A DNA stretch of 64,000 bases from a bacterium (GTDB lineage: Bacteria > Elusimicrobiota > Elusimicrobia > UBA1565 > UBA9628): NCBI GenBank assembly GCA_021822495.1, contig JAKAQO010000009.1, positions 15,663-79,662 of the forward strand, read 5' to 3'. Shown piece by piece: positions 15,446-21,655 of this stretch. Both the position numbers and the translations under genes were made by a program. The notes under the pieces were generated by a model, which ran no database searches, had not been told where the DNA came from, and saw only the letters and a list, made by a program, of their open reading frames with translations. Each line of letters begins with the position of its first letter. Positions within the stretch are counted from its first letter, which is position 1.

Positions 15446-15892
15446 TTATTGCGGCTTTGAGCGCACCATCAAGGACCAGACCCCGCCCTGAACAATATCC
15501 CCTCGTTGATTGGAAAGCTCGGCGTTTAAAAGGACAAAACCCTGCCCCTGTCCGACGCGGCGAAGTTTTGACACTTCCATTTTTAAGGAAACCGAATCTC
15601 CGATAAAAATCGGCTTTTTAAATTTCCACTCGCCGCCGGTAAAAGCGATGATGGTTTCCCGAATGATTCCCGTGTCGTGCAAAAGACCGCTGGCGACCGA
15701 AAGGCCCAAAAGCCCATGCGCGATTTTTTGTCCAAACGGGCTTTTCTTGGCGAAATCCTTGTCAAAATGAAGCGGATTCATGTCTCCCGAGACCTGGCCG
15801 TATTTTTCAATCATCTCTTCCGTGACTATTCTCGGGCGCGGACTGGTGAAGACCTGCCCAATCGCAAAATCTTCAAAATAAAGGCTTTTCAT
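15446..15892 (-). CDS. MaoC-family (R)-specific enoyl-CoA hydratase-like protein
   Basis: A 148-aa hot-dog-fold hydratase that adds water to enoyl-CoA or removes it. The family core is clear: LYFEDFAIGQVFTS at the start, then YGQVSGDMNPLHFD with the catalytic Asp and His, then IAHGLLGLSVASGL. The frame is open further upstream, but the ATG at 15892 is preceded by AGGAAA at good spacing and gives the usual MaoC N-terminus. It is separated from the acyl-CoA genes upstream (17.3-21.6 kb) by two toxin-antitoxin pairs. I infer that it once belonged to the same operon. Confidence 0.9.
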   Translation of the reverse strand: MKSLYFEDFAIGQVFTSPRPRIVTEEMIEKYGQVSGDMNPLHFDKDFAKKSPFGQKIAHGLLGLSVASGLLHDTGIIRETIIAFTGGEWKFKKPIFIGDSVSLKMEVSKLRRVGQGQGFVLLNAELSNQRGDIVQGGVWSLMVRSKPQ

Positions 15893-16049
15893 GGTTTCCT
15901 TTCGTACGGACTCTGGCCGTTCTCCAACGAATCTGGAAACGGCGCTTCCTCGCCTATGCTCGGTTGGAGCCAACCATTTCTGACCGAATATAAATGAGGG
16001 AATGCCGCTTCCAAATTCTGTTTAAGAGAGCAGCTTCGCTTAGGCTCAG

Positions 16050-16298
16050 TCATATTTTCCCTCGGCGGCAATCGCGAACATAGGATATCTCAATTCGTCC
16101 CGACTCCGCAATTCGATAAATAATGTGAAACATTCCAACAACCGTTGAACGAAACCCGGAGAACGGCCCGGTCATCTCTGGCCCGATTTCGGGAAACTCC
16201 TCCATAATCTCAAACCGAGCGATAATTTTTGAAAAAAGCGATTCCGCAGTGCCGTCTAAATCCTCCCGCGCCGGGGGAGAGAGAAAAATTTTATTTAT
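16050..16298 (-). CDS. RelE/ParE-family toxin with ATA in the start position
   Basis: An 82-residue frame free of stops that reads as a RelE/ParE mRNA interferase or gyrase-poisoning toxin: INKIFLSPPAREDLDG at the start, GFRSTVVGMFHIIYRIAESG in the middle and ISYVRDCRRGKI at the end. No ATG, GTG or TTG lies in frame between the upstream stop and a Met at about residue 32, well inside the fold. The codon where the family normally has Met is ATA (16296-16298), eight bases after an AGAGG-like sequence and overlapping the antitoxin end by eight bases. Either ATA is used as a rare weak start, or the start codon has mutated and the toxin is silenced. Confidence 0.72.
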   Translation of the reverse strand: MNKIFLSPPAREDLDGTAESLFSKIIARFEIMEEFPEIGPEMTGPFSGFRSTVVGMFHIIYRIAESGRIEISYVRDCRRGKI

Positions 16299-16566
16299 GA
16301 GAGGCCCTCTTTTTCAAATAAGCGCCCAAGGAAATCATTCGCCCTTCCCGCGCCTCGGTTTTTGCTCGCTTGAGACGGGATTTCCAATCGGGATAAGCCA
16401 TTTCTTCCACAGTCGCCTTAAGACCCTCAAACATCTCGCAACTCACCAAAACCGCAGCCGCACGGCCGCGCTGGGTGACAAAAACCGGTTCTTCCGTCTT
16501 TTTAACCTGTTCAACGTAGCGCTTAGCCTTTGATTGAAGGTCGCTGATGGGTATAATGTGTTCCAT
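16291..16566 (-). CDS. Phd/YefM-family antitoxin
   Basis: A 91-aa antitoxin that binds DNA and neutralises the overlapping toxin. The N-terminal Phd/YefM pattern is clear: HIIPISDLQSKAKRYVEQVKKTEEPVFVTQRGRAAAVLVS. The C-terminal tail is basic and probably folds on the toxin. The reading frame is open to 16602, but the first in-frame codons lie inside the promoter, so the ATG at 16566 is the likely start. The -10 ends seven bases before it. Confidence 0.88.
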   Translation of the reverse strand: MEHIIPISDLQSKAKRYVEQVKKTEEPVFVTQRGRAAAVLVSCEMFEGLKATVEEMAYPDWKSRLKRAKTEAREGRMISLGAYLKKRASHK

Positions 16567-16573
16567 ATATTTA

Positions 16574-16602
16574 AGCATAGGTCTAAAGATATATATTGTC
16601 AA
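16574..16602 (-). promoter_or_regulatory. Promoter of the first toxin-antitoxin pair
   Basis: TTGACA (16597-16602), a 17-base spacer and TATGCT (16574-16579) on the minus strand, then seven bases to the ATG. The spacer is AT-rich (ATATATATC). A leaderless transcript is implied. Confidence 0.75.
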
Positions 16603-16608
16603 GGCCTC

Positions 16609-16634
16609 TCGTCATTCCCCGCGGTGAAAGCCGG
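16609..16634. repeat. Diverged partial copy of the GGAATGACG intergenic repeat
   Basis: CGTCATTCC, a short GC-rich core and AAAGCCGGGAA resemble one half of the element at 4188-4260 read in reverse. The stem is imperfect, so this is probably a decayed copy. Confidence 0.4.
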
Positions 16635-16715
16635 GAAATATTGCGACTATGTTGCAACCGGCGCCCCAATTCAGCGCGCAGTTTTGTTTGGGGTCGCACT
16701 ATAAGGCCCTAGAAT

Positions 16716-16970
16716 TCAAACCCGATAAACGTCTCTCCGGTGGCCAATCCGGTAAATCAGGATCATCCGAATCTCGGTCTCCACTTTATAGACGAGGCGA
16801 TAATCTCCCACCCGATAAGAACGCAACCCATGGTAAGGACCTTGAAGAGGCTTGCCGAGGACAGGGTCCTCCACCAAACGCTCAAAAGCCTTGACGATCC
16901 GGGAGCTAATGATTCCCTCAAGAGCATGAAAGTCCTTGGCCGCGGAAGGAACAAATTCAATGCGAAACAC
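16716..16970 (-). CDS. RelE-family toxin
   Basis: An 84-aa mRNA interferase-like toxin. RIEFVPSAAKDFHALEG at the start and the C-terminal GLRSYRVGDYRLVYKVE ... RIGHRRDVYR are standard RelE/ParE features, with Arg, Tyr and His residues in the positions used for RNA cleavage in RelE relatives. It overlaps the end of its antitoxin by 14 bases, the usual arrangement for translational coupling. It has an ordinary ATG, in contrast to the neighbouring toxin at 16050. Confidence 0.92.
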   Translation of the reverse strand: MFRIEFVPSAAKDFHALEGIISSRIVKAFERLVEDPVLGKPLQGPYHGLRSYRVGDYRLVYKVETEIRMILIYRIGHRRDVYRV

Positions 16971-17235
16971 GCTTTCTGCCGACTACATCCTCATAACTCA
17001 AACGCCGCCCTGATCTATCCTCGCGCCGAGCCTTGGCCAAGGCTTTCTTCCAAGAAGGAGATTGGACGATTTCCAAGGTCTCAAGCCAACCCTCGAACTC
17101 ATCAAAACCCATCATGACGGCCTCGGGCTTTCCATGATGAGTGATCACGTAGCGCGAAAAAGTCTCGCCCGCGTCTTTAACGAGGGACAGAAAACGGCTT
17201 CGCGCTTCCGTCGTCGGCAATGTATAAGAGGCCAT
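16957..17235 (-). CDS. Phd/YefM-family antitoxin
   Basis: A 92-aa antitoxin with a Phd/YefM N-terminus (TLPTTEARSRFLSLVKDAGETFSRYVITHHGKPEAVMMG) and an acidic-basic C-terminal tail for toxin binding. The frame extends two codons further to a TTG at 17241, but that codon overlaps the -10 box, so the ATG at 17235 is preferred. It precedes and overlaps the RelE toxin. A perfect palindrome lies in its promoter. Confidence 0.9.
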   Translation of the reverse strand: MASYTLPTTEARSRFLSLVKDAGETFSRYVITHHGKPEAVMMGFDEFEGWLETLEIVQSPSWKKALAKARREDRSGRRLSYEDVVGRKRVSH

Positions 17236-17241
17236 AAACAA

Positions 17242-17270
17242 AGGTTAGCAGAAAAATGTACATTTTTCAA
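17242..17270 (-). promoter_or_regulatory. Promoter and palindromic operator of the second toxin-antitoxin pair
   Basis: On the minus strand TTGAAA (17265-17270), 17 bases and TAACCT (17242-17247), then six bases to the ATG. The perfect 18-base palindrome GAAAAATGTACATTTTTC (17251-17268) overlaps the -35 and spacer, as expected for an autoregulated antitoxin operator. Confidence 0.75.
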
Positions 17271-17288
17271 TAGCCCCAAGATTTAAAT

Positions 17289-17768
17289 TTACGCCGCTTC
17301 AAAATGGAGGATATCGGAAAGTTTGCCTTGGCGGTTTTCCGCGAAGACAGGCTTAACCCGAATGCCGATGGTCGGCGGCCAGTCAGGATCGACTTTGAGG
17401 AAATGCTGAAACTGGGTCGAGGCTCCGTCTAAAAGAATAAAAGCGTATCCGTACGGCACGGGTTTTTTCTCCCCGGTCTCGGGATCAATAAAAGGAAAGC
17501 GTAAGATTGTAAAAGCCGACAAAGTCCCCATGGGGCCAACCTCGACCCATTCTTCCATCGTCTTAAAGCAGGGTCCGCAAACTTTTCGGGGCGGAACATA
17601 GACCTTCTTACAAGACGGACACTTGAGCCCAAAAAACTTTTTATGGTCCCGGAGTTCGGTGAAAAAACGGCTTCCCTCTTTTCCCACTGAATACTGAAAA
17701 GGCTGGAAGGCTTCTCCGCTTTCGATGAAAATAAAATCCGATCGCTTAAGACGGTTTTTCTGAACCAT
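17289..17768 (-). CDS. DUF35 zinc-ribbon/OB-fold acyl-CoA-binding protein, copy 2
   Basis: A 159-aa DUF35 protein. The N-terminal rubredoxin-like zinc ribbon has two Cys pairs, CPSC and CGPC, 14 residues apart (near residues 50-68). The C-terminal OB-fold follows (GTLSAFTILRFPF ... YGYAFILLDGAS). Known DUF35 proteins hold acyl-CoA and bridge or complete thiolase, HMG-CoA synthase or steroid retro-aldolase complexes. It overlaps the thiolase-like gene upstream by 23 bases. It is homologous to the DUF35 protein at 19991-20434, with a shared SRFF(T/K)xLRD opening. Confidence 0.9.
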   Translation of the reverse strand: MVQKNRLKRSDFIFIESGEAFQPFQYSVGKEGSRFFTELRDHKKFFGLKCPSCKKVYVPPRKVCGPCFKTMEEWVEVGPMGTLSAFTILRFPFIDPETGEKKPVPYGYAFILLDGASTQFQHFLKVDPDWPPTIGIRVKPVFAENRQGKLSDILHFEAA

Positions 17769-18900
17769 AGATTAAAATGTCAGACCAAAAACATCCTCCA
17801 AAGCCGGTAGAAAGAGCTTTTTTTACGCCTTCCGCCTGGCGCTCGCCCGCCCGGCCCATAATCTGATGCGCGCATTCAGCCGCACGAATAAGCCCGGTCG
17901 CGCCAATGGGATTGGTGGACAAAACCCCGCCGGAAAGGTTGATCGGAAGAGCCCCGCCCGCATCAGTCACCCCGTCCCAGATTAATTTTGCGCCTTCCCC
18001 CGGTTTGGCGAGCCCCAAGGCCTCAATCCAGGATAAATTGGCGAAAGAGTAGGGAGTATAGAGTTCCATCAGATTGATTTCCTTTAAAGGCTCTTTAATG
18101 CCTAATTTCGCGTAAAGCTCTTTCGCGGCAAGGTCCAAAGATTTGAGCGGATACCATTCGACGTCGCCCAAGTAAGCATAGGGATGACGATTGGCCGCCC
18201 CCAAAACCCAGGCAGGCTTGGGACAAATTTTTTCGGCGTAATCTTCGTTAGCGAAAATGACCGCGCAGGCGCCGTCAGTGCGGGGACAAATATCCAGGGC
18301 CTTAATGGGGTCCGACAAAAGCGGAGCGCGCAAAACCTCGTCCAAGGTCACTTCTCTTCTTAAATGCGCGTGAGGATTTTTGACCGCATGCTTGCGGTCC
18401 CGAACTACCGCCCGAGCCGCGTCTTTTTCGGTGACTCCAAACTTTCTCATATAGGCGGAAGCCTCAACCGCAAGCCCCGAAATCGCTCCCGCAAACACCA
18501 GGCGGTCCCAAACCGGATCAAAGGCAGTCGTAATCGCCCCCGTCGTATCCGATTCGGAATTTTTTTCCCAGCCGATGACCAAAAGCTTATTGAAAAGCCC
18601 CGAGGCGGTGAGATGATAGCCGCCAATCGCCAAGGTGCTCCCTGTGGTGCCGCCGGTGGTAAGTTTGATCGTCGGCTTTAAAATGCCGCCGTTTCCGGAA
18701 ATAGACCAAAGCTCAACCCCGTTAATTCCCTCAAAATGGTCCATGTTGCCGATGACGACTCCGTCAATGTCGTCAAGAGTCAGCTCCGCGTCCTGAAGGG
18801 CGCGGGAAACGGCTTCTTGAATGAGTTCAACTCCCGTCACGTCAAAACGATTTCCGTTATGATCAGTCTGTCCGCAGCCGACAATCGCGGTCCTTTTCAT
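17746..18900 (-). CDS. Thiolase-like protein lacking the nucleophilic Cys, copy 2
   Basis: A 384-aa protein of the thiolase/SCP2-thiolase fold (lipid-transfer-protein group). The N-terminal KRTAIVGCGQTDH and DIDGVVIGN motifs and the C-terminal GFGGCFWSDIL, which keeps the second catalytic Cys, are clear. In the place of the loop with the acyl-accepting Cys stands TTGGTTGSTLAIGG. The GHPxGATG His is Asn (STNPIGATG). It is therefore unlikely to be a classic thiolase; a retro-aldolase or a structural partner is more likely. I chose ATG 18900, which shares an A with the upstream stop, over an extended start at 18939. Confidence 0.88.
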   Translation of the reverse strand: MKRTAIVGCGQTDHNGNRFDVTGVELIQEAVSRALQDAELTLDDIDGVVIGNMDHFEGINGVELWSISGNGGILKPTIKLTTGGTTGSTLAIGGYHLTASGLFNKLLVIGWEKNSESDTTGAITTAFDPVWDRLVFAGAISGLAVEASAYMRKFGVTEKDAARAVVRDRKHAVKNPHAHLRREVTLDEVLRAPLLSDPIKALDICPRTDGACAVIFANEDYAEKICPKPAWVLGAANRHPYAYLGDVEWYPLKSLDLAAKELYAKLGIKEPLKEINLMELYTPYSFANLSWIEALGLAKPGEGAKLIWDGVTDAGGALPINLSGGVLSTNPIGATGLIRAAECAHQIMGRAGERQAEGVKKALSTGFGGCFWSDILIYGSEKPS

Positions 18901-19991
18901 CAGTTCTCCAAAACCCAGACCGAATGCGATTGCCCGCAAAGCCCGTATTGACCATGGGCCAAAGCACGCTTAACGTTTGCCGCTTGATTTGAGGCCTGGC
19001 CTCTGAGTTGAAGAGATGCCTCAATCATTCGCGCAAGGCCCGAAACAATCCACGCATGGGCCGATAAACAACCGCCGGAAAGATTGACGCGGCTTGAATT
19101 TTGATAATTGAGTTCTTCCATCCATAAAAGTTCCTGGTAAGAAAATTGCTCGGAAAGCTCCACAACATCAATTTGTTTAGTTGGCTGATCAATGCCCGCC
19201 ATTTGATAGGCTTTTTGAGCGGCCAGCCTCAAGGCCTTGGACTCCGCAAGATTTCTTTCCCCAAAAGGAGCGTCGGCACAAAGCCCCATCCCTCGAATCC
19301 AGATGGGGTGAGGACTTTTTTTCCTGGCAAAGCTCTCTTTCGCCAAAATTAGGGCGGCGGCTCCATCTGAAGACGGACAGACATCGGTTTCTTTGAGCGG
19401 CGCGGATAAAAGGGGAGAACGCAAAGCCTCGTCAATCGTCAAAGGTTTTCTAACGTGCGCCTTGGGGTTTTTCGCGCCGGAGGCGCGGTTTTTAACGACC
19501 ACGTTTCCGCACTGGATATTGCTGATATTTTTCTCTTTTAAAAACACTCGCGCCTGAAGAGCCGCAGCGGAAACCCAATCCAAGCCTAAACTTCTCTCGG
19601 TCAAGGGATCAAAGAAAGCGTTGGTCAGAAGCCTCAAGTCTCCTTCGGAAGATTTAGAATGGGCGATGACCAAGGTCGTCTCATAACTCCCGGACAGAAT
19701 GCGGCTGAACCCGTATAAAGCGGCAAAAGAACCGTCTCCCTCAACTGTAGAAATGCTTTTCCCATTTCCAAAAGCCGCCCCGCAAGCGTCTCCCACGGCC
19801 ATGCTCGAAATAGTTCGCCCGTCAAAGAAATCATTGGAGGCGGTGACGATGTTGTCAATATGGTCAATCGTCAGCTCGGCGTCCGCCAAAGCCGCTGTCG
19901 TCGCTTCATAAACTAAATCAGCATAAGTCTGGTCTTTCCGATTGGACCCGAAGACCGTTTGGCCGACGCCGATAATCGCGACCGGTTCCAT
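18900..19991 (-). CDS. Thiolase-like protein lacking the nucleophilic Cys, copy 1
   Basis: A 363-aa thiolase-fold protein, paralogous to the next gene: EPVAIIGVGQTVFG, DNIVTASNDF, an AFFDPLTER/AFDPVWDR segment in both, and LSGGCLSAHAW near the end. The loop that normally carries the nucleophile reads STVEGDGSFAALYG, without Cys. The GHP-type His is kept (SAHAW), as is a late Cys (YGLCGQSH). The two paralogues therefore lack different residues and could form a heterodimer with complementary sites. It lies directly between a DUF35 gene and its paralogue. Confidence 0.87.
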   Translation of the reverse strand: MEPVAIIGVGQTVFGSNRKDQTYADLVYEATTAALADAELTIDHIDNIVTASNDFFDGRTISSMAVGDACGAAFGNGKSISTVEGDGSFAALYGFSRILSGSYETTLVIAHSKSSEGDLRLLTNAFFDPLTERSLGLDWVSAAALQARVFLKEKNISNIQCGNVVVKNRASGAKNPKAHVRKPLTIDEALRSPLLSAPLKETDVCPSSDGAAALILAKESFARKKSPHPIWIRGMGLCADAPFGERNLAESKALRLAAQKAYQMAGIDQPTKQIDVVELSEQFSYQELLWMEELNYQNSSRVNLSGGCLSAHAWIVSGLARMIEASLQLRGQASNQAANVKRALAHGQYGLCGQSHSVWVLEN

Positions 19992-20434
19992 TAGTTCGCC
20001 GCCCTAAAATACAAGATATCCAAAATTGAACCCGTCCGCTTTTCCGCAAAAACCGGAGAAACCTTTATCCCGATTTTGAGACTTTGCAAATTGGTCTCGC
20101 CCAAGAGATGAAAGAATGCGGTATCGGCCCCGTCCAATCGAATTAATCCAAAAAAAGGTTTTGAGGAGCGGTGCGCGGGGCTGACATAAGAGGCTTGCGT
20201 AAAACTAAGAAGCGTTCCGCTCGGCCCCACTTCCAGCCATTCCGAACATTCGACAAAGCAGGTCCCGCAAGTTTTTTTAGGCGGCGCATAAACTTTTTGG
20301 CATCTCGGGCAACGGATTCCTAAGATTTTTTGCTCGTCCCGCAAGGCTTTAAAAAAACGGCTTAAGGTTTCCCCCGCCGACCAGGTATAAGGAACCTTAA
20401 TCCGGCTCGGGTGAGTCAAAATTTCAGTCGTCAT
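19991..20434 (-). CDS. DUF35 zinc-ribbon/OB-fold acyl-CoA-binding protein, copy 1
   Basis: A 147-aa DUF35 protein with a zinc ribbon (CPRC ... CGTC, near residues 39-56) and an OB-fold (GTLLSFTQASYVSP, FGLIRLDGADTAFFH). The C-terminus SPVFAEKRTGSILDILYF matches that of copy 2 closely (KPVFAENRQGKLSDILHF). It overlaps the acyl-CoA dehydrogenase gene by four bases and abuts the thiolase-like gene, so the three are translationally coupled. The probable role is acyl-CoA delivery to the thiolase-like partner. Confidence 0.9.
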   Translation of the reverse strand: MTTEILTHPSRIKVPYTWSAGETLSRFFKALRDEQKILGIRCPRCQKVYAPPKKTCGTCFVECSEWLEVGPSGTLLSFTQASYVSPAHRSSKPFFGLIRLDGADTAFFHLLGETNLQSLKIGIKVSPVFAEKRTGSILDILYFRAAN

Positions 20435-21591
20435 TGGTCTGCCATCCGAGCTTCCCTGAGAATTTCCCGCGCGATAATCAGTTGCTGAATTTGCGAAGTT
20501 CCTCCGCCAATTCCAATGAGCACTGCGTCTCGCAAATAACGCTCGACGGGAAATTCCTTGGTGAAACCATATCCACCTAAAATCTGAACCGCCGCTTGAG
20601 TCGCCCTCAAGACCATCTGCGCGCCAAAGAGTTTAGCAAAAGAAGCGTATTTAGAAACAGACAGGCCCTCATCCAAGCGCCAGGCCGCCTGATAAGTTAA
20701 AAGACGGGACGCCTCGATTTCGGTCGCGGTTTGAGCCAACATTTCCTGAATCATCTCAAACCCGGAAATGCTTTGTCCAAATTGCTTTCGCGCTAAAGCA
20801 TAGCGGGAAGCGTAATCAAAAGCCGATTGGGCAATACCCACTGGCATGCCTGAAAAAACGGCGCGCTCCATGTCTAAGCCCTTAAGCATATAAGACAAAC
20901 CTTTCCCTTCTTCGCCCGCCAGATTTTCCTGGGGAACGCGGCAATCTTGAAAAACCAATTCCGAAAGCGGAGAGCCCCGCGTCCCTAATTTAGGAATGTC
21001 TTTTGAAACAGAAAAACCGGAAAAACCTTTTTCGATGATAAAAGCGGAAAGCAAGGTTTTTCCGCTCCCGCGGCGAACCCGGGCGAGCAAAAACACGACA
21101 TCGGCAACCGAACCATTGGTGATGAAAATCTTCGTCCCATTGAGGACGTATTCGTTTCCTTTCAAGATGGCGGTCGTTTGAAGCGAAGCGGCATCGGAGC
21201 CCGAACCGGGCTCGGTCAAAGCAAAAGCGCCAATCCATTCTCCCGAACAAAGTTTCGGCAAATATTTTTTCCGCTGCTCATGACTAGACGCGGAATAAAG
21301 ATTATGCGCGCAGAGAAAAGAATGCGCCCCGTAGGAAAGAGTCAGCCCCGCCGAGGCGTAAGACAATTCTTCCATGACAAGGGCGGAGGCCAAAAAGCCA
21401 GCCTCCGTTCCGCCGTATTCCCTGGGAATCGCCACCCCCAAAAGTCCCAACCTCCCCATTTCCGCCCACAAGTCCCTGGGAACCGCTTTCGACTCCTCAA
21501 TTTCCAAAGCTCTCGGCAAAACTGTTCTTCGCGCAAAATCGCGAGCGGTTTCCTGAACCAGTTTTTGATCTTCGTTTAAATTCAAGTCCAT
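20431..21591 (-). CDS. Acyl-CoA dehydrogenase (isovaleryl-CoA dehydrogenase-like)
   Basis: A 386-aa flavoenzyme that introduces a double bond at the alpha-beta position of acyl-CoA. ALTEPGSGSDAASLQT, IFITNGSVADV and ARKQFGQ ... QILGGYGFTKEFPVERYLRDA are family signatures. The usual catalytic Glu position (YEGT in medium-chain enzymes) is GGGT. A Glu in LDMERAVFSG matches the position used by isovaleryl-CoA dehydrogenase, so a branched substrate is plausible. First gene of the acyl-CoA set. A TATACT at 21604-21609 lies only three bases before the first ATG (21600), so I prefer the second at 21591. Confidence 0.92.
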   Translation of the reverse strand: MDLNLNEDQKLVQETARDFARRTVLPRALEIEESKAVPRDLWAEMGRLGLLGVAIPREYGGTEAGFLASALVMEELSYASAGLTLSYGAHSFLCAHNLYSASSHEQRKKYLPKLCSGEWIGAFALTEPGSGSDAASLQTTAILKGNEYVLNGTKIFITNGSVADVVFLLARVRRGSGKTLLSAFIIEKGFSGFSVSKDIPKLGTRGSPLSELVFQDCRVPQENLAGEEGKGLSYMLKGLDMERAVFSGMPVGIAQSAFDYASRYALARKQFGQSISGFEMIQEMLAQTATEIEASRLLTYQAAWRLDEGLSVSKYASFAKLFGAQMVLRATQAAVQILGGYGFTKEFPVERYLRDAVLIGIGGGTSQIQQLIIAREILREARMADQ

Positions 21592-21655
21592 TAAAATCAT
21601 TGTAGTATATGTTTATGGAACCCGCGCAATCACGCATAAAGCTAGAGATAAACCA

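What the first reader, a model, noticed from the sequence alone, without database searches (positions are those of the whole stretch)
15446..21591. Duplicated thiolase-like/DUF35 set with lost nucleophiles
Order of transcription: IVD-like dehydrogenase, DUF35, thiolase-like, thiolase-like, DUF35, (toxin-antitoxin), MaoC. Both thiolase-like proteins lack the acyl-accepting Cys; one also lacks the His, while the other keeps it. Known Cys-less relatives (Ltp2 with DUF35) are retro-aldolases acting on acyl-CoAs hydrated by MaoC partners. The set could form a hetero-oligomeric aldolase that shortens a branched or cyclic acyl-CoA by dehydrogenation, hydration and cleavage.
Basis: partly seen in the sequence, partly recalled or inferred. 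Interest (0 to 1): 0.75.

Follow-up and report, generated by a model that had tools for sequence, protein, structure and literature searches.

The report
Ltp3/Ltp4-like paired acyl-CoA aldolase operon
A small operon in an uncultured Elusimicrobiota bacterium encodes two thiolase-shaped proteins that have lost thiolase chemistry, two zinc-ribbon partner proteins, a dehydrogenase and a hydratase; it is a cousin of the Ltp3/Ltp4 aldolase pair that actinobacteria use to trim branched sterol side chains, and probably cuts branched acyl-CoA molecules whose branch blocks ordinary beta-oxidation.

Summary
The operon reads dehydrogenase, DUF35, thiolase-like TLA, thiolase-like TLB, DUF35, MaoC; a toxin-antitoxin block is a later insertion. 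Both thiolase-like proteins have Gly where thiolases carry the acyl-accepting Cys; TLA keeps the GHP-type His, TLB has Asn. The block DUF35-TLA-TLB-DUF35 recurs in Desulfobacterota, Spirochaetota, Clostridia and other Elusimicrobiota.

TLA and TLB form two partner clades with actinobacterial Ltp4 and Ltp3, whose locus carries the two DUF35 domains fused (Rv3521 type). Ltp3/Ltp4 is reported as a heteromeric aldol-lyase for C24-branched sterol side chains.

TLB has an invariant Tyr (88/88) where Ltp2 and Sal carry their catalytic Tyr. TLA has this Tyr in 70/82 relatives but Ser in the window's genus, so TLA here is probably a degenerate partner. The dehydrogenase is isovaleryl-CoA-dehydrogenase type and the MaoC keeps its catalytic Asp/His.

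Best explanation: a heteromeric retro-aldolase for 3-hydroxyacyl-CoAs branched at C3. Substrate, activity and stoichiometry are untested. A new variant of a known kind, apparently unstudied in anaerobes.

The parts
20431..21600 (-). ACD: isovaleryl-CoA-dehydrogenase-type acyl-CoA dehydrogenase, 389 aa; base Glu at position 245 (20866-20868), canonical C-terminal Glu replaced by Gly366
   Evidence: Pfam Acyl-CoA_dh domains; best PDB hits are IVDs 4o5m, 1ivh, 4kto; residues by alignment
19991..20434 (-). DUFa: DUF35 protein (zinc ribbon C-x2-C-x10-C-x2-C plus OB fold), 147 aa
   Evidence: PF12172 over its cut-off; PF01796 24.7 bits, just under the 27.1 cut-off; zinc Cys pattern
18900..19991 (-). 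TLA: short thiolase-like protein, 363 aa, Ltp4-side paralogue; nucleophile Cys -> Gly87 (preceded by Glu84 and Asp86), HDAF His -> Ser280, GHP His kept (His312)
   Evidence: AlphaFold model pLDDT 89.8, thiolase fold Z 48.8 to 6et9
17746..18900 (-). TLB: thiolase-like protein, 384 aa, Ltp3-side paralogue; nucleophile Cys -> Gly84, HDAF His -> Tyr281 (proposed catalytic base), GHP His -> Asn330; near-invariant Cys370 in the C-terminal loop
   Evidence: AlphaFold model pLDDT 87.5, Z 44.1 to Ltp2 6ok1 and 43.3 to Sal 9myr
17289..17768 (-). DUFb: second DUF35 protein, 159 aa, zinc ribbon intact, overlaps the end of TLB by 23 bases
   Evidence: PF01796 and PF12172 over cut-off; zinc Cys pattern; coordinates
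15446..15892 (-). MaoC: hydratase-2 type enoyl-CoA hydratase, 148 aa, catalytic Asp37 and His42 (D-M-N-P-L-H)
   Evidence: PF01575 1.4e-25; motif; about 60-70 bp behind DUFb in three sister genomes
16056..17241 (-). Not part of the system: block of two Phd/YefM-ParE-like toxin-antitoxin pairs inserted between DUFb and MaoC
   Evidence: PF02604, PF05016; second toxin-like frame 16053-16313 read by eye; absent at this site in L033, L034, L036

Best explanation
TLA, TLB, DUFa and DUFb form one heteromeric complex, most simply DUF35-TLA-TLB-DUF35 by analogy with the alpha-beta-beta-alpha arrangement solved for Sal. It is a retro-aldolase in the Ltp3/Ltp4 line, not a thiolase. Proposed path: the IVD-type dehydrogenase oxidises a C3-branched acyl-CoA at C2-C3, passing electrons to the genome's ETF; MaoC hydrates the double bond to a tertiary 3-hydroxyacyl-CoA, which cannot be oxidised to a 3-ketoacyl-CoA and so cannot go through thiolysis; TLB Tyr281 takes the proton from the 3-hydroxyl, the C2-C3 bond breaks, and a ketone plus acetyl-CoA (or propionyl-CoA) is released without free CoA or an acyl-enzyme. 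In the window's genus TLA has lost its own Tyr and probably serves as a structural or substrate-binding partner, so only TLB's site would be active. Shown here: gene content, conservation, residues, phylogeny, predicted fold. Inferred: complex formation, stoichiometry, catalysis, C3-branching of the substrate.
For: Tree: TLA with Ltp4 and TLB with Ltp3 are two groups each needing one change (support 98/98), apart from Ltp2, BbsB, SCP2-thiolase and the archaeal-type thiolase. The Nocardia locus used is the Rv3520c-Rv3521-ltp4-ltp3 locus: TIGR03559 F420_Rv3520c 508 bits next to a protein with two PF01796 stretches, a PRK07937 protein (596 bits) and a PRK08313 protein (750 bits); gene order of M. 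tuberculosis in PMC6429209. Ltp3-Ltp4 is called a heteromeric aldol-lyase in PMC6678751 and aldol lyases for C24-branched chains in PMC6593523. Tyr of the YDHF/YDCY motif is catalytic in Ltp2 and Sal: Sal Y302F abolishes activity (PMC12329534); TLB has Tyr there in 88/88. The natural fusion of two DUF35 domains in the actinobacterial sets argues for both acting in one complex. The same partner organisms group together in both halves of the tree. The window's dehydrogenase has the IVD-type base and is the only one of four in the genome that does; the dehydrogenase nearest the block has the same type of base in many other single-dehydrogenase loci. ETF is present. MaoC keeps Asp/His.
Against: Only the Tyr base is matched: the Ltp2 His of YDHF and its second Tyr, and Sal's Cys304, have no counterpart (Pro283; Pro or Cys at the Tyr344 column), so the proton donor is unknown. 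TLB keeps a near-invariant Cys370 (85/88) in the C-terminal loop, so Cys chemistry of another kind is not excluded. NCBIfam cut-offs for the Ltp3/Ltp4 subfamilies are not reached. No complex was modelled. The host also has a carboxyltransferase-crotonase-HMG-CoA lyase cluster of the usual leucine-route type, so a branched acyl-CoA route may already exist there. In long syntroph clusters two dehydrogenases of other types stand nearby, one with the canonical Glu, and 13 of 37 well-flanked loci have no dehydrogenase within reach. The review's proposed sterol route includes a carboxylation before the aldol step.
Confidence: 0.62

Rival explanations
1. TLA and TLB are two separate homodimeric aldolases, each with its own DUF35 partner, acting on successive or different substrates.
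For: Ltp2 and Sal are homodimers with two DUF35 domains (PMC12329534); most relatives keep Tyr in both TLA and TLB.
Against: The two are found together in 77 of 80 loci, their trees pair the same organisms, actinobacteria fuse the two DUF35 domains, and the window's TLA lacks the Tyr yet stays under purifying selection, dN/dS 0.065-0.075.
Confidence: 0.2
2. [quoted passage not shown]
For: Closest predicted-fold matches are 6esq/6et9, the archaeal thiolase/HMG-CoA synthase complex; PhlC and MucABC also match; aldol reactions are reversible.
Against: The acyl-carrying Cys is absent from both subunits; no HMG-CoA-synthase partner lies in the block; the neighbours are degradative (dehydrogenase, hydratase, acyl-CoA ligase, TetR).
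Confidence: 0.08
3. TLA and TLB are non-catalytic acyl-CoA or lipid binding proteins (the old 'lipid-transfer protein' label).
For: NCBIfam names relatives of TLA 'lipid-transfer protein'; both lack the thiolase nucleophile.
Against: Active-site positions are invariant, including Tyr281, Gly84 and Asn330 in TLB; Ltp2 carries the same label and is an aldolase (PMC12329534).
Confidence: 0.07

Closest known systems
Ltp3/Ltp4 with Rv3521 (actinobacterial C24-branched sterol side-chain aldol-lyase)
   Same: Same two paralogous thiolase-like partners (TLB with Ltp3, TLA with Ltp4), same pair of DUF35 domains, Cys absent in both, Tyr and Asn in the Ltp3/TLB subunit, V-E-x-D at the Cys site of the Ltp4/TLA subunit
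   Different: DUF35 domains are two separate genes; flanked by an IVD-type dehydrogenase and a single MaoC instead of a KstR sterol regulon; the organisms are from lineages that are mostly anaerobic (general knowledge); TLA of the window's genus has Ser instead of Tyr (most relatives) or His (Ltp4); scores stay below the NCBIfam cut-offs
Ltp2-ChsH2(DUF35) aldolase (PDB 6ok1)
   Same: Thiolase fold plus DUF35, Cys lost, Tyr at the HDAF-His position
   Different: One thiolase-like protein forming a homodimer; DUF35 fused to the hydratase; second Tyr and the His of YDHF not matched in TLB
Sal-Shy(DUF35) aldolase (PDB 9myr)
   Same: [quoted passage not shown] essential Tyr at the same position
   Different: Homodimer; uses Cys304 as second residue, which is Pro283 in TLB; C3H1 zinc site in the DUF35 domain versus C4 here
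[quoted passage not shown]
   Same: Thiolase-DUF35 complex, same fold
   Different: Both retain the nucleophilic Cys (seen in the BbsB alignment; archaeal case by family knowledge) and are true thiolases

Membership tests
Thiolase (Cys-dependent acyl-CoA thiolase) | Nucleophilic Cys at the N-terminal active-site position | tested here: not met
   Gly in TLB 88/88 and in TLA 81/82 relatives
Thiolase (Cys-dependent acyl-CoA thiolase) | HDAF/NEAF His and GHP His | tested here: not met
   TLB has Tyr and Asn; TLA has Ser and a retained GHP His
Ltp3/Ltp4 paired aldol-lyase | Two paralogous thiolase-like subunits of the Ltp3 and Ltp4 clades | tested here: met
   Maximum-likelihood tree, each group one change, support 98/98
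Ltp3/Ltp4 paired aldol-lyase | Companion carrying two DUF35 domains | tested here: inconclusive
   Two DUF35 domains are present but in two separate genes, against one fused protein in actinobacteria
Ltp3/Ltp4 paired aldol-lyase | NCBIfam cut-offs PRK08313 (514) and PRK07937 (419) | tested here: not met
   341 bits for TLB and 197 bits for TLA; Nocardia Ltp3/Ltp4 pass with 750 and 596
Ltp3/Ltp4 paired aldol-lyase | Sterol/KstR gene neighbourhood | tested here: not met
   No steroid genes seen around the operon on reading the ORF lists of the window
Ltp3/Ltp4 paired aldol-lyase | Retro-aldol activity on a tertiary 3-hydroxyacyl-CoA | not testable with these tools
   Needs an enzyme assay
Ltp2/Sal steroid aldolase | Catalytic Tyr in the Y-D-[HC]-[FY] motif | tested here: met
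   Tyr281 of TLB aligns with it, invariant in 88 relatives, but the motif reads Y-x-P-Y
Ltp2/Sal steroid aldolase | Second catalytic residue (Tyr344 in Ltp2 or Cys304 in Sal) | tested here: not met
   Pro or Cys at the Tyr344 column, Pro283 at the Cys304 position
Isovaleryl-CoA dehydrogenase | Base Glu on helix G and no Glu at the canonical C-terminal site | tested here: met
   Glu245 and Gly366 aligned to 1ivh and 4o5m
Isovaleryl-CoA dehydrogenase | Activity on isovaleryl-CoA | not testable with these tools
   Needs an assay; long-chain acyl-CoA dehydrogenases also place the base there (family knowledge)

The most novel reading that the evidence does not exclude
In these bacteria the operon is a biotin-free route for C3-methyl-branched acyl-CoAs: for example isovaleryl-CoA to 3-methylcrotonyl-CoA to 3-hydroxy-3-methylbutyryl-CoA, cleaved to acetone and acetyl-CoA (or, run backwards, a carboxylation-free way to take up acetone or methyl ketones). 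The catalytic core is asymmetric: TLB works and TLA is a degenerate partner.
Probability: 0.17. Interest if true: 0.75.

Novelty: new variant of a known kind. Interest (0 to 1): 0.45.

Why it matters
Beta-oxidation stalls on acyl-CoAs branched at C3, and the textbook way round is ATP- and biotin-dependent carboxylation. A thiolase-fold aldolase pair that simply splits the tertiary alcohol would be an energy-saving way round in energy-limited anaerobes, and the gene block is widespread in such organisms (Syntrophaceae, Smithella, Desulfosarcina, Desulfatibacillum, Spirochaetota, Syntrophomonadaceae, Elusimicrobiota). It also gives a genetically clean set for testing how Ltp3/Ltp4 works, for which a sequence search of the PDB with TLA and TLB found only distant thiolase-family chains, and the window's genus offers a natural case of one subunit losing its catalytic Tyr.

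Tried and rejected
Ltp2/ChsH2 and the archaeal thiolase-HMGCS-DUF35 set as nearest kin: rejected by the tree, although the archaeal complex is the best predicted-fold match (rows differ by little and a shared fold shows no function). Toxin-antitoxin genes as part of the system: rejected, absent in three sister operons. IpdAB identity for the CoA-transferase pair in the long syntroph clusters: glutaconate CoA-transferase 1poi scores higher (137 and 156 bits against 66 and 45), so left open. A leucine-only role: weakened because the host has a carboxyltransferase-crotonase-HMG-CoA lyase cluster. The primary Ltp3/Ltp4 paper (doi 10.1099/mic.0.059501-0) is not held, so statements about it rest on later papers. 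Paper searches for this module in syntrophs or for an isovalerate link found nothing relevant. Two family scans failed on coordinates and the first structure requests on a full queue; all were repeated.
Full report
What is there. The window lies in a 2.2 Mb Elusimicrobiota-type genome (94.7% complete; near relatives are named Elusimicrobia). On the - strand from 21600 to 15446 runs an operon: acyl-CoA dehydrogenase (ACD), DUF35 (DUFa), short thiolase-like protein (TLA, 363 aa), thiolase-like protein (TLB, 384 aa), DUF35 (DUFb) and MaoC. The junctions ACD/DUFa (ATGA), DUFa/TLA (TAATG) and TLA/TLB (TGATG) overlap, and TLB overlaps DUFb by 23 bases. A block with two Phd-ParE-like pairs separates DUFb from MaoC in the window, but in sister genomes L033, L034 and L036 MaoC follows DUFb after about 60-70 bp, so MaoC belongs to the operon and the block is a later insertion.

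Residues. Aligned with thiolases of known structure, TLA and TLB both have Gly at the acyl-accepting Cys. TLB has Tyr281 at the His of the HDAF motif and Asn330 at the His of the GHP motif; all three are invariant in 88 sequences. TLA carries V-E-G-D-G at the Cys site and keeps the GHP His (81 of 82). At the HDAF His, TLA is Tyr in 70 of 82 sequences, but Ser in all nine members of the window's genus; L079, L084 and L063 have Cys, His and Ser. In Ltp2 this Tyr (Tyr294 of YDHF) is the catalytic base, and in Sal the equivalent Tyr302 is essential (Y302F abolishes activity; PMC12329534). The second residue of either enzyme is not matched in TLB. A Cys in the C-terminal loop of TLB (Cys370) is nearly invariant and should be tested.

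Relatives. A scan of GTDB genomes with TLB gave 80 loci, nearly all with the block DUFa-TLA-TLB-DUFb in the same order, from Desulfobacterota (Smithella, Syntrophaceae, Desulfosarcina, Desulfatibacillum), Spirochaetota, Syntrophomonadaceae, an Anaerolineae bin and Elusimicrobiota. In a sample of 294 genomes of the phylum, a match at E <= 1e-60 was found in nine: all five of the window's genus, three others with full-strength matches (708 bits or more) and one with a weaker match of 274 bits, a patchy pattern that suggests transfer or loss. Of 37 loci with at least 4.5 kb on both sides, all 37 have DUFa, TLA and DUFb, 26 an acyl-CoA ligase motif, 24 a dehydrogenase, 20 a MaoC and 14 a CoA-transferase pair. 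Some neighbours there are duplicated dehydrogenases and MaoC halves, which recalls the heteromeric ChsE/ChsH enzymes of steroid degraders.

Phylogeny. In a 62-sequence tree (LG+C20+F+G4), all TLB and all actinobacterial Ltp3-type proteins fall in one group and all TLA and Ltp4-type proteins in another, each with support 98/98; Ltp2, BbsB, SCP2-thiolase and the archaeal-type thiolase lie outside. Some rows have long branches (A_L115a, B_L119b, Ltp2). That the Nocardia locus is the Ltp3/Ltp4 locus rests on its neighbour scoring 508 bits with the Rv3520c family model and on the order Rv3520c, Rv3521, ltp4 (Rv3522), ltp3 (Rv3523) in M. tuberculosis. Its companion, like that of L113, has two DUF35 stretches in one protein. 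This fusion is the best sequence argument that DUFa and DUFb act in one complex with TLA and TLB.

Structure. AlphaFold models of TLB (pLDDT 87.5, pTM 0.90) and TLA (89.8, 0.92) are thiolase folds. Against solved structures, TLB scores Z 51.7 to 6esq (rmsd 2.2 over 373 residues), 44.1 to Ltp2 6ok1 (3.0 over 366) and 43.3 to Sal 9myr (3.1 over 371); TLA scores 48.8, 41.2 and 40.4 to 6et9, 6ok1 and 9myr. The stretches of lowest confidence (TLB 128-136, TLA 130-134) lie near the loop that is disordered in the Ltp2 and Sal crystals. The folds fit several functions and do not decide between them.

Partners. The dehydrogenase's best PDB matches are isovaleryl-CoA dehydrogenases. It has Glu245 at the helix-G base position and Gly366 at the canonical site; the genome's other three dehydrogenases have the canonical Glu. 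The dehydrogenase nearest the block in many single-dehydrogenase loci (for example L038, L099, L100, L103, L105, L106, L110) also has the helix-G Glu and no canonical Glu. An ETF pair is in the genome. MaoC has the hydratase-2 motif. Together this points to a C3-branched substrate, because a tertiary 3-hydroxyacyl-CoA cannot be oxidised to a 3-ketoacyl-CoA; that chemical argument is general knowledge, not a result here.

How it compares with what is known. Ltp3 and Ltp4 are described as aldol lyases for C24-branched sterol side chains (PMC6593523; PMC4761994) and as a heteromeric aldol-lyase (PMC6678751), all citing Wilbrink et al. 2012, which I could not read. The review puts a carboxylation before the hydration and cleavage. 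The window's set is therefore a relative of a known kind, not a new kind. It differs in host, gene neighbourhood, separate DUF35 genes and TLA's lost Tyr, and it falls below the NCBIfam cut-offs, so I do not call it Ltp3/Ltp4 proper.

Substrate. Open. A leucine role is possible because this dehydrogenase is the only IVD-type one of four, but the genome also has a carboxyltransferase, a crotonase and an HMG-CoA lyase side by side, the usual leucine-route set. The aldolase may serve a longer branched acyl-CoA, or both routes may share the dehydrogenase.

Verdict. Observation confirmed; interpretation right in kind but anchored to the wrong nearest relative and not demonstrated. Interest 0.45.

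Noticed in passing
16056-17241: Two adjacent Phd/YefM-ParE-like pairs sit inside the operon, between DUFb and MaoC; the second toxin-like frame (16053-16313) was read by eye and not confirmed by a family search. In sister genome L035 about 1.8 kb of other sequence separates the same two genes, so the spot may be an insertion hot spot.
   Followed up: partly
L072:837-2261, similar proteins in L043, L074, L080: DUF35 fused to a beta-keto acid cleavage enzyme (BKACE, PF05853) a few kb upstream of the aldolase block in Syntrophaceae-type genomes; a DUF35 domain on a non-thiolase enzyme. The domain call was made on L072 only.
   Followed up: partly
L078:669-12406 and about 15 similar loci: Long cluster around the aldolase block: acyl-CoA ligase, glutaconate CoA-transferase-like pair, protein of unknown family (302 aa, no Pfam hit), TetR, two dehydrogenases (one without the canonical Glu), two MaoC halves; looks like an uncharacterised catabolic regulon.
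   Followed up: partly
L100:8810-12200: A Clostridia genome carries a second, more divergent TLA/TLB/DUF35/DUF35 set close behind the first, so the family has radiated.
   Followed up: no
L162:4848-8106 (own genome, contig C1): Carboxyltransferase, crotonase and HMG-CoA lyase side by side: a leucine-type route in the same genome.
   Followed up: partly
L040:8766-11064: Beside the aldolase block of a Thermodesulfobacteriota genome, on the opposite strand, stand a dehydrogenase (helix-G Glu), a MaoC and a further DUF35 protein.
   Followed up: no
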